Origin: Cladophialophora immunda
Taxonomy: Eukaryota; Ascomycota; Eurotiomycetes; Chaetothyriales; Herpotrichiellaceae
DNA: 64,000 bases
Assembly: GCF_000835495.1 (NCBI RefSeq)
Contig: NW_015622541.1
Location: forward strand, 6,572,001-6,636,000
Reading direction: 5' to 3'
Of this stretch, positions 44,472-53,925 are shown one piece after another. The notes beneath the pieces are model-generated. The model ran no database searches. It was not told the origin of the DNA and was given only the letters and a program-made list of their open reading frames with translations. A program made the translations under genes and the position numbers. The first letter of the stretch is position 1. Each line of letters starts with the position of its first letter.

Positions 44472-45342
44472 TGCGGTGACTGGTGAGCGGAAAGTTATGA
44501 GAATGTTGAATAGGCAGAATAAGGACGAAATCGAACTGTAGCGTGACAAAAATTATTGACGTTGCCGCAAGGCTGAACATCAGCCTTGCCAAGCTTTGGG
44601 AAAGTGGGGCATCCATCTCAAAAACATCATTTGTTGAGATGCTTAGACTTCTTCGGAAGGTCAGGCTGATTCATCAGAAGCGGTACGAGTGGCAAAGAAG
44701 AATGCGCGAGAAAGACTACGCCTTTTTAATACTACTATACAGCTCTTGACACCAGATACGTGTTTTGAGGTCGTCACAGGTGGGGGGCTCTACCTTTCGG
44801 TACAAGCCCTCGCCCTCTGTTACCTTCTGTCTGACCCCTGGTTGAAGGAGGCATTGTAAGGATAACTGGTAGGGGTGATTGGAGCCGATCAACGTTATTA
44901 ACGGATAATTCATGTATCGGCGGTCTCGCTGTTCCAAGACACAACATTCCCACCAGCATTCTCATAGGCAATAGCCTGACTAGGCTCGGAAGACCTCACA
45001 CGACCTTTCTTTCTGCCAAGTTATAGCTTATCACTCTCCTTCTTTTCAACTCTTTCACTTTGGACAAATGTAATCTTGAGCCCACTCAATCTATCAACAG
45101 AACGGAGGTCTGGCAGCTAGCCCGAAGCAACAACAATGCTCCTGACCCTCCTGGTATCCGACGAACTTCGGCTGGACCACGGCCTTCTCCGACCATTGCT
45201 ATACTCCAGCTCAGAGAGTTACAAAGATATGGCATATAATTTACTCATGTACGCATATCTAAGCAATGGTCAAGGCGACGTTTGTGTGTGATTGCAGCTC
45301 ATATACTATGTACTTGCGTTAGTCTTCTGGTAAGACTTTAGG
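44472..45342. other. Divergent promoter region of CCT8 and aminotransferase genes
   Basis: About 870 bp. It contains the CGGCCTTCTCCG element at 45180-45191 on the aminotransferase side. No gene was recognised. This is where the housekeeping block gives way to the metabolic cluster. Confidence 0.55.
45180..45191 (+). promoter_or_regulatory. Cluster operator copy 1 (CGGCCTTCTCCG)
   Basis: This CGG-N6-CCG inverted repeat starts 163 bp before the aminotransferase ATG. The identical 12-mer recurs at 47555-47566 and, inverted, at 53671-53682. CGG-N6-CCG is a spacing used by Zn2Cys6 homodimers such as Ppr1 and UaY (established). Function here is inferred. Confidence 0.65.
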
Positions 45343-47038
45343 ATGGGTTCAATTGATCCTACCTTGGCAGGAATAACGGCGGCAGAGGTGAACGACGACT
45401 ATGAACAATGTATTGCAGGCGGGTTCGCTCCTCTTCCAGTAGGTCGCTCATGCGATATGTCTTCTATGCTCGCTTCTAGTATATCAGAAGACCCCCGTTC
45501 TAATGTTTATAGGTACCCCTGGCTCGAGCTCAGGGTGCGCTTGCGTACGATGTTGAGCATAAGTCATACATCGATTTCTTGAGCATGATCGCCGTCAACA
45601 ACATGGGCCACGGCCATCCCAGGATTGTCAACGCGGCAGTAAAGGCACTCCAATCAGGGCCCACCGTCAATCTCGCCTTCCAAAGTCCGTATTACGGCCA
45701 ACTCGCCAGGCGCCTCACCCAAGTACGTATGACGTGAAAATGTCACAGCTTTTCTAGAGCCATACAATTGACACAGGCGTCCAAGGCATTTAGCTATGAC
45801 CGTTTTGTAGCATTGACAAGTGGTGGTGAAGCCGTCGATGCCAGCATGAAAATCGCAAGGAAATGGGGTCATCTCGTCAAGGGCATTCCAGTGGATAAAA
45901 GCTTCATCTTGAGCACCTCTGGCTGCTATCACGGTGTTGGTCTATCTCCGCTGTCTCTAGCAAGCAAAAAGAACCGCCGTGAGTAATCTTCTGTCGTGAT
46001 AGATATGATGCAGCTAACGTGACCTCAGTCTTTGAGACCTTTCTCCCGCACATTGGTTCCACAAGTCCTTCCGGCATTTCGATCCGTTATGGTTCTCTGG
46101 AAGATGTGGAAATGGCATTCGAGCTCGATGGCTCTGAGATGGCTGCTTTTATCGTTGAACCCATTCAGGGGGCAGCTGGGTAGCGTTTAGCCCTCGAGCG
46201 AGCACTTCCCCTTCGGCTGGCTGATGGGATTCCAGTGTTATAGTGCCGCCCGACGACTATCTGCCTGGAATTGCCCGCCTCTGCCGGCAATACAATGTAC
46301 TCTTGATTGCCGACGAGATTCAGACCGGACTGGGACGATGTGGATATCCTCTCTTCCACATGAAGGCTGGTATCCGTCCGGACCTGGTGATCCTGGGGAA
46401 GGCCTTATCAGGAGGTTTGTTGCCTCTTTCAGAATTCGTGGCTCATCATAGGGGATCTGACTGGGTAATTTCAGGCGTATATCCTGTTTCGGGGGTGCTG
46501 GGAGACAACCACATCATGGAACTGCTTGACCCTTATGAGTAAGTGAAAAAATCCACATCAGCTTATTATGTAACCCTTACTGAATAGCCCGTGATCTTGA
46601 AGAGTCGGCTCAACCATGGCAGCGAATCCGCCCGGATGTGCTGCCTCTTTGGCCGCCATCGATGTGCTCTTTGATGAAGACCTGTCCGCTCGAGCACTGA
46701 TGCTAGGCGATCTGTTGATTTCGACCTTGAAATCATACGAACCGCCCCATGTCAAAGAATATATGGGTGCGGGCCTCCTCTGGGCCATTGTGATCAACGA
46801 GAAGCCTCCTCAAGTGACCAGTCGGCGGGTGGTTGCTCTTCTGGTGCAGAGAGGCGTCCTAGCCAACGCCATCAAAGGCGGCAGGATTCGCATCTGCCCT
46901 CCCTTGACTATTAGCACCGGCCTCTTGCTGAAAGGGGTGGAGATCATCGTGCAGGCTCTGCGGGATGTGGAAGACCATCCCGAAGGCTTGCCAGGGGAGA
47001 CGGTTGTGATCAAATATCCGATCTCGCCGGACGAGTAG
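45343..47038 (+). CDS. Ornithine-aminotransferase-like class III aminotransferase
   Basis: This PLP enzyme would move a terminal amino group, probably to 2-oxoglutarate, leaving a semialdehyde or ketone. The six exons are 45343-45438, 45513-45722, 45777-45978, 46029-46179, 46236-46538 and 46603-47038, giving 465 aa. PLP-site features are VNNMGHGHPRIVNAA, TSGGEAVDAS, VEPIQGAAG, Asp246 in DEIQTGLGRCG and the Schiff-base Lys275 in ILGKALSGG. The best match by pattern is ornithine aminotransferase (IRPDLVILGKALSGG, VSGVLGDNHIM). The usual EHGSTYGGNP loop reads EVGSTMAANP here, so it is a divergent paralogue and may use another amine. First gene of the cluster, with the shared operator in its promoter. 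Confidence 0.9.
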
Positions 47039-53139: not shown

Positions 53140-53925
53140 TTTGGTAGGACAGAAGGTGTGATTTCTGGGTAGAAATAGATTCACGACCCAAAACAAGAGC
53201 GTTTTTCGGGGCTGCTTTCGTTGCTCTGCAAATGGACCGGGTGTCCTGTATTCTGTCACTACCGTCGGTACTTCTGAGTGTGCGTGTCCTCGCTTTCACG
53301 AAGAACATCTGCCGGCCTTGTCAGCTCCTTGAGCGAAAACAAGGAGTCCTTGAAGGTAAAATCCTGGAGAAGATGCGGGTATATGTGGTCCACGGCACAG
53401 TATACTCGTACCAGAGCAGCCAGACCATATCGATGAAAGTCTAGACTCTTCGCCTGCCTTGAGGATACCGCAAGAGCAGCGGGAAGAGAGAAGGCGGAGT
53501 TTCCCTTGAAATAACATCCGTTGTGCGGGATTCGGGCCCCAGATAAGATACGGGTAATTTCCCTGTGGCCTTTTGGCCTGCTCGATATCCAAGCAACATA
53601 CCGGTCATTTCTGGAGGTAATTGCGAGATCTAACTTCCGGGTGACCGTTTGAGTTTGGACTGTAGTGTGGCGGAGAAGGCCGTAAATGGTGGCTGAAATC
53701 TCGGTCTATATCCGCTCGAGCCGTTCAAGATGAAGCAGTTCTAGGGGCCTCACCGTACCCTACGTCGTCAGCGTGACGAGTTGTGACATGTATTGTTGTA
53801 GATGGTCGAGTATCTAGTCAAAAAGCGAAGTCAATCGGCAACCTTCTCTATACAGCCATCCAGGATCCGAAAAGGCCTCCGTGTGGGATTTGATTGCTCT
53901 CCTTTCCTTGAAACAGGCATCCTTA
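53140..53925. promoter_or_regulatory. Divergent promoter of symporter and SDR genes
   Basis: 786 bp between outward-facing starts, with operator copy 3 at 53671-53682. A near-miss CGG-N7-CCG lies just downstream (about 53702-53714). No other gene is present. Confidence 0.6.
53671..53682 (-). promoter_or_regulatory. Cluster operator copy 3 (CGGAGAAGGCCG, inverted)
   Basis: This is the exact reverse complement of the elements at 45180 and 47555. It starts 255 bp before the SDR ATG and lies about 530 bp before the symporter ATG. Confidence 0.65.

What the first reader, a model, noticed from the sequence alone, without database searches (positions are those of the whole stretch)
45180..53682. 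Exact 12-mer operator CGGCCTTCTCCG repeated in three cluster promoters
The same 12 bases occur at 45180-45191 (before the aminotransferase), at 47555-47566 (upstream of the P450) and, as the reverse complement, at 53671-53682 (between symporter and SDR). It is a CGG-N6-CCG inverted repeat, the form bound by Zn2Cys6 dimers such as Ppr1 and UaY. By eye I found no other copy in the 64 kb. Three copies of a given 12-mer in about 8.5 kb, all outside well-supported genes, are very unlikely by chance. This is direct evidence that these genes form one regulon.
Basis: partly seen in the sequence, partly recalled or inferred. Interest (0 to 1): 0.88.

Follow-up and report, generated by a model that had tools for sequence, protein, structure and literature searches.

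The report
Shared switch sites across fungal cluster
The repeated 12-letter word is real but is only part of a wider pattern: almost every promoter of a dozen-gene fungal cluster carries the same kind of paired DNA site, often in doubled form, suggesting that one or both regulators encoded in the cluster switch these genes together.

Summary
The 12-mer CGGCCTTCTCCG is present three times as stated, but it is not specific: 11 copies genome-wide against 12 for its reversed control. Eight promoters of the cluster, which runs past the window's right edge, hold 9 CGG-N6-CCG dyads in 4,474 bp; 0.5-0.8 are expected. Seven of eight are occupied, and none of the other 62 spacing/orientation classes exceeds 5. 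An automatic mask gives a weaker result (P 0.0024). Among solved structures both resident Zn2Cys6 proteins match yeast Ppr1 best, ungapped through the linker; Ppr1 binds CGGN6CCG (PMC11534201, passage). Seven of ten dyads have an outward CGG 18 or 19 bp away; in four promoters this completes a second dyad about three helical turns from the first. Best reading: a cluster-wide Ppr1-type regulon with phased double operators. Binding, inducer and conservation are untested. New member of a known kind, with an unusual site arrangement.

The parts
45158..45191 (.).
   Evidence: dyad ends 151 bp before the ATG at 45343
45343..47038 (+). Class-III aminotransferase 1 (ornithine aminotransferase-like), several exons spliced by hand
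   Evidence: PF00202 1.7e-86; 98% to CLAIMM_08841, which scores 1.3 bits over the TIGR01885 cut-off
47287..47619 (-).
47555..47566 (.).
48087..50118 (+). Cytochrome P450 1; the one of eight cluster promoters (47620-48086) without a dyad
   Evidence: PF00067 2e-44
50632..53139 (-). Sodium/solute symporter family transporter (Dur3-like by recall only)
   Evidence: PF00474 4.6e-16; TIGR00813 182.2 bits, cut-off 184
53671..53714 (.).
53926..54803 (+). Short-chain dehydrogenase/reductase, two exons
   Evidence: PF00106 1.5e-31
54898..56682 (-). Zn2Cys6 regulator TFm with Ppr1-type linker (CSFDDPVTGETVPRSYIARLDENIRKLK), spliced by hand
   Evidence: PF00172 and PF04082; best PDB match Ppr1 1pyi 1.9e-11, next 4.2e-5; E. 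sideris PV11_08234 71% over 100%
57026..57037 (.). Dyad CGGACAAAACCG in the divergent promoter of the two regulators (possible autoregulation)
57182..59330 (+). Zn2Cys6 regulator TFp with Ppr1-type linker (start 57182 or 57242)
   Evidence: PF00172 and PF04082; best PDB match Ppr1 1pyi 9.9e-13, next 2.8e-4
59481..60560 (-). C45 family acyltransferase/hydrolase (penicillin acyltransferase-like)
   Evidence: PF03417 2.3e-28; NF040521 6.5e-74
60827..60889 (.). Double operator plus half-site: CGG-N6-CCG (60827) - N18 - CGG-N6-CCG (60857) - N18 - CGG (60887)
61109..62589 (+). Amidohydrolase, several exons spliced by hand
   Evidence: PF01979 4.9e-26
62730..63941 (-). Aldo/keto reductase (left end approximate); its promoter is shared with aminotransferase 2 just beyond the window edge, where a further double operator lies at continued coordinates 64079-64122
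   Evidence: PF00248 9.1e-14 on a piece

Best explanation
The three 12-mers are part of a set of Zn2Cys6 operators of CGG-N6-CCG form that mark seven of eight promoters of one gene cluster of at least 12 genes: aminotransferase 1, P450 1, symporter, SDR, two regulators, C45 acyltransferase, amidohydrolase, aldo/keto reductase, aminotransferase 2, P450 2 and amidase. One or both of the resident Ppr1-type regulators bind these dyads as homodimers. In five of the eight promoters a dyad is paired with a second dyad or half-site 30-31 bp away, so that two dimers would sit on the same face of the DNA and could bind cooperatively. When the inducer, probably a nitrogen-containing substrate of the pathway, is present, they would turn the cluster on together. 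Shown: positions, enrichment, phased spacing, linker similarity. Inferred: binding by the resident proteins, cooperativity, activation, the catabolic role.
For: Genome rate 7,262 dyads in 42.2 Mb. Among solved structures both regulators match Ppr1 best, without gaps through the linker; the TFm linker is conserved in the Exophiala sideris ortholog with one change. The linker sets the spacing between triplets (PMC4245848, passage) and Ppr1 binds CGGN6CCG (PMC11534201, passage). Outward CGG at N18/N19 on 7 of 10 dyads (6 separate events; 6 or more in any two-offset window of either triplet in 0.04% of 5,000 simulations). All 4 exact double dyads with gap 18/19 and second spacer 6/7 in the 104 kb examined lie in 4 cluster promoters. 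On contig C1 (8.2 Mb) this locus has 8 dyad-plus-CGG matches (N18 or N19) in 25 kb, two physical pairs counted twice; the next best place has 4 (positions).
Against: An automatic coding mask gives a much weaker result, 5 dyads against 0.9 expected (P 0.0024), tied with CCG-N19-CGG; it masks parts of real promoters and loses 4 of the 9 sites. Gene ends were set by me, after the first dyads were known. P450 1 has no dyad in its promoter. The regulator promoter (57026) and copy 2 (47555) lack a partner site; the amidase promoter has only a degenerate one. One dyad also lies in one of four non-cluster gaps checked (1 in 5,826 bp). Ppr1-like linkers are not rare among this genome's Zn2Cys6 proteins (several of 56 matches run through the linker), so the resident proteins are not the only candidates. 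Two second dyads have N7, which a Ppr1-type dimer may bind poorly. The N18/N19 pattern was found after looking, and it is not preferred elsewhere: 1 and 1 among 39 background dyads, mean 1.5 per offset; genome-wide 254 at N19, 281 at N18, 228 at N20. No DNA of related species could be examined.
Confidence: 0.74

Rival explanations
1. The dyads are real operators, but the factor that binds them is encoded elsewhere, for example a Ppr1/UaY ortholog or one of the other Ppr1-linker Zn2Cys6 proteins; the resident regulators act elsewhere or by another site.
For: The genome has 150 listed Zn2Cys6 domains, the only ones scored of 701 candidates, and several other proteins match the TFm domain through its linker. 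The cluster has an SSF transporter that looks Dur3-like (recall).
Against: 0 of 10 dyads has the UaY-type flanks T-CGG-N6-CCG-A (flanks printed; the UaY consensus is recalled). Resident regulators with a fitting linker are the simplest source.
Confidence: 0.15
2. The exact 12-mer itself, spacer included, is the operator and the other dyads are noise.
For: Three identical spacers among ten dyads is striking. All six left-half sites fit CGGASRMRVCCG, a pattern I derived from them; it has 257 matches in the genome, against 525 for the reversed control. PMC4006717 (passages) says that the bases between the triplets can affect binding.
Against: Dyads with other spacers are enriched without sharing it. 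Likeness of the four distinct left-half spacers is not significant (P 0.075). The 12-mer is not enriched genome-wide.
Confidence: 0.08
3. Coincidence: the sites are chance matches in G+C-rich DNA.
For: The window as a whole has no excess of CGG-N6-CCG (14 against 17.2 expected). Some 12-mer triplet occurs by chance in 5 of 60 simulated windows. The masked test is only moderately significant.
Confidence: 0.05
4. The sites were copied with promoter pieces when the aminotransferase/P450 pair was duplicated, and reflect descent only.
For: Aminotransferase 1 and 2 and P450 1 and 2 are paralogs in the same cluster.
Against: Dyads also occur in promoters of genes without a paralog in the cluster. By eye the flanks printed are not alike, apart from a 16-bp repeat at 66164/66195. 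Of the 21 blastn pieces between the two regions, the five with E below 0.02 lie in aminotransferase exons by my coordinates; the rest are at chance level.
Confidence: 0.03

Closest known systems
Ppr1 operator (CGG-N6-CCG) of yeast pyrimidine genes and of Candida albicans purine-catabolism genes
   Same: Same triplets, orientation and 6-bp spacing (PMC11534201, passage); resident regulators have the Ppr1-type zinc cluster and linker
   Different: Cluster-local targets of another pathway; doubled operators at 30-31 bp; the palindromic flanks of Ppr1 sites (recalled) are not seen
UaY operator of Aspergillus purine genes (TCGG-N6-CCGA, recalled)
   Same: CGG-N6-CCG core
   Different: 0 of 10 dyads has both outer bases T and A (flanks)
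Pathway-specific Zn2Cys6 regulators of fungal clusters and catabolic genes (GliZ, AflR, RhaR)
   Same: CGG-CCG dyads in the promoters of target genes; GliZ and AflR are cluster-specific regulators (PMC4006717, passages)
   Different: Other spacings where stated: predicted N3 for GliZ (PMC4006717, passages), N11 for RhaR (PMC4245848, passages); two related resident regulators here

Membership tests
Ppr1-type CGG-N6-CCG operator | Inverted CGG triplets with exactly 6 bp between | tested here: met
   10 sites: 9 in seven of eight promoters and 47555 in the small frame
Ppr1-type CGG-N6-CCG operator | Enriched in promoters over other spacings | tested here: met
   9 against at most 5 for the other 62 classes, P 1.3e-7 for all eight at the genome rate; weaker with an automatic mask, P 0.0024 and tied with one class
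Ppr1-type CGG-N6-CCG operator | UaY-like flanks TCGG...CCGA | tested here: not met
   0 of 10 (flanks printed); a feature of UaY sites by recall, so this counts against UaY, not against the N6 form
Ppr1-type CGG-N6-CCG operator | Bound by a Zn2Cys6 homodimer | not testable with these tools
   needs gel shift or DAP-seq
Ppr1-type Zn2Cys6 regulators (TFm, TFp) | Six-cysteine zinc cluster | tested here: met
   PF00172 above cut-off in both
Ppr1-type Zn2Cys6 regulators (TFm, TFp) | Linker alignable without gaps to that of Ppr1 | tested here: met
   alignments to 1pyi
Ppr1-type Zn2Cys6 regulators (TFm, TFp) | Orthology with Ppr1 or UaY | tested here: inconclusive
   only the DNA-binding part was compared; the full-length TFm search gave 6 proteins among 7,997 scored candidates (a capped list), none named Ppr1 or UaY in the names shown
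One cluster-wide regulon | Operator in most promoters of the cluster | tested here: met
   7 of 8
One cluster-wide regulon | Sites conserved in orthologous clusters | not testable with these tools
   the genome has no relatives here
One cluster-wide regulon | Co-expression | not tested

The most novel reading that the evidence does not exclude
The operator is a phased double site, CGG-N6-CCG - N18/19 - CGG-N6/7-CCG, 42-44 bp long with the two dyads about three helical turns apart, read cooperatively by two Ppr1-type dimers, possibly one of each resident regulator. The two halves of the cluster would be told apart by spacer class: all six left-half dyads fit CGGASRMRVCCG (a pattern drawn from them), none of the four right-half dyads does.
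Probability: 0.35. Interest if true: 0.6.

Novelty: new member of a known kind. Interest (0 to 1): 0.42.

Why it matters
To my knowledge (recall) most fungal clusters with resident Zn2Cys6 regulators have no known operator. Here sequence alone gives a specific, testable operator, links it to the linker type of the resident regulators, suggests bounds for the cluster (beyond the window), and suggests a double-dimer arrangement on one DNA face. If right, two related regulators with the same half-site and spacing rule share one cluster, which makes the question of how such pairs divide their targets testable.

Tried and rejected
Exact 12-mer as a genome-wide marker: rejected, 11 copies against 12 for the reversed control. 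CGG-N6-CCG density over the whole window: no excess; total density over the 24.4-kb cluster is raised (13, against at most 7 and 9 in two 100-kb backgrounds) but that alone is not decisive. Automatic coding mask: too crude, hides parts of real promoters; its result is reported as evidence against. Spacer consensus of the left half: P 0.075. UaY flanks: not met. Small frame at 47.3-47.6 kb as a real gene: unlikely; one partial homolog, and the C. immunda gene numbers CLAIMM_08832 to 08841 leave room for just the eight other genes (inference from names). Simple automatic gene models failed for the aminotransferase and symporter and were wrong at several starts and exons, so I spliced by hand; single residues at joins may be off. 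P450 1 against PDB at 1e-20: nothing. A link of the cluster to toluene use in C. immunda: no CLAIMM_088 tag found in the main text of PMC5595782; its supplements were not looked at because that cap is 0.
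Full report
Setting. The window is contig C1, 6572001-6636000, of a 42.2-Mb genome in 39 contigs. It is probably a black yeast close to Cladophialophora immunda: aminotransferase 1 is 98% identical to CLAIMM_08841 (inference). The genome has no relatives here, so conservation of sites could not be tested.

Observation. Against a fixed 12-mer this is unlikely by chance. Against all 12-mers it is less so: 5 of 60 simulated windows have such a triplet, and the window has a second one, in coding sequence by my gene models. 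Genome-wide the word occurs 11 times against 12 for its reversed control. So the 12-mer by itself is weak evidence.

From 12-mer to dyad. I counted CGG/CCG pairs in every orientation and spacing 0-20 in the five divergent or upstream promoters inside the window plus the body of the small frame: CGG-N6-CCG gave 6 (one of them in the small frame), all 83 other classes 0-3.

Right flank. The 40 kb right of the window hold a second aminotransferase and P450, paralogs of the first pair (58% for the C. immunda aminotransferase 2), and an amidase. Their promoters carry dyads at 64079, 66164, 66195 and 68494 (window numbering continued). With gene starts fixed the eight promoters total 4,474 bp and hold 9 dyads; expected 0.77 at the genome-wide rate (7,262 in 42.2 Mb) or 0.52 at the rate of crudely masked non-coding background (12 in 103,865 bp). 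Seven of eight promoters are occupied, and none of 4,000 shuffles reaches either figure. Four gaps outside the cluster, including the one right of the amidase (1,617 bp, limits approximate), hold 1 dyad in 5,826 bp. Three further dyads of the cluster (50008, 52667, 55763) lie in genes, about the genome rate. The automatic-mask version of the test is weaker: 5 against 0.9, P 0.0024, tied with CCG-N19-CGG; the mask hides about half of two promoters.

Double sites. The tie was informative: four of the five CCG-N19-CGG pairs share a triplet with a dyad. Scanning outward from the ten dyads, CGG lies at N19 or N18 on 8 of 20 sides, which are 6 separate events on 7 dyads; a two-offset window of either triplet reaches 6 in 0.04% of 5,000 simulations. 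In four promoters a second dyad is complete: 53671 (N19, N7), 60827 (N18, N6), 64079 (N19, N7) and 66164 (N19, N6). Over gaps 0-40 and second spacers 4-9 the 104 kb hold 8 double dyads; these are 4, and the other 4 have 4 different spacings. The amidase site 68494 has a second dyad at N19 with one mismatch (CGC-N6-CCG). The start-to-start distance of 30-31 bp is close to three turns of B-DNA. Among 39 background dyads the outward CGG occurs once at N19 and once at N18, no more than at other offsets, and genome-wide dyad plus CGG occurs 254 times at N19, 281 at N18 and 228 at N20, so the spacing is not special in general. On contig C1 this locus has 8 in 25 kb and the next best place 4 (the pairs 66164/66195 and 60827/60857 count twice). 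The pattern was found by looking, so its probability carries a look-elsewhere test but still needs independent data.

Regulators. TFm and TFp lie between the enzymes. Both have the zinc cluster and the fungal regulator domain. Against all solved structures Ppr1 (1pyi) is the best match of each, by about six and eight orders of magnitude in E-value, aligned without gaps through ...VPRS...L. The linker sets the spacing between triplets (PMC4245848, passages only) and Ppr1 binds CGGN6CCG (PMC11534201, passage only). Other proteins of this genome have similar linkers, so assignment to the resident pair rests on proximity and fit.

Function of the cluster. Ornithine-type aminotransferases (the C. 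immunda copies score 1.3 and 34 bits over the TIGR01885 cut-off), an SSF symporter, SDR, two P450s, C45 acyltransferase, amidohydrolase, aldo/keto reductase and amidase, with no polyketide or peptide synthase among the genes examined, suggest breakdown of a nitrogen-containing compound (inference). CLAIMM_08832 (aminotransferase 2) and CLAIMM_08841 (aminotransferase 1) are listed with contigs of the same length, 218,264 bases, and their numbers leave room for eight genes between them, as here (inference), so the gene content is probably shared.

Verdict. What remains unknown is which regulator binds, what induces it, and whether the double site works as a unit. My searches for prior reports were limited to (listings and a few passages), which do not show that such an arrangement is new.

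Noticed in passing
right of the window, G000:C1:6636227-6640126 (continued 64227-68126): A second aminotransferase/P450 pair, paralogous to the first, with double operators in both promoters.
   Followed up: yes
47287-47619 (-): Open frame of 110 codons whose last part matches P0001, labelled dihydrodipicolinate synthase/N-acetylneuraminate lyase by its source; probably a gene relic between aminotransferase 1 and P450 1.
   Followed up: partly
55830, 61405, 61814: A second 12-mer, CGCTGGTGCAGA, also occurs three times within 6 kb, in coding sequence by my gene models; a useful caution on chance repeats.
   Followed up: partly
G000:C1:6643700-6649114 (continued 71.7-77.1 kb): Right of the amidase lie what read as an MFS-type transporter and a CLC-type channel (by reading the translations only, no family search); no dyad in the 1,617 bp before the transporter, so the regulon may end at the amidase.
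   Followed up: partly
54898-56682 (-): The deposited Fonsecaea erecta relative of TFm (P0002, 456 aa) lacks the zinc cluster part that the E. sideris one (P0003) has; possibly a gene-model error.
   Followed up: no
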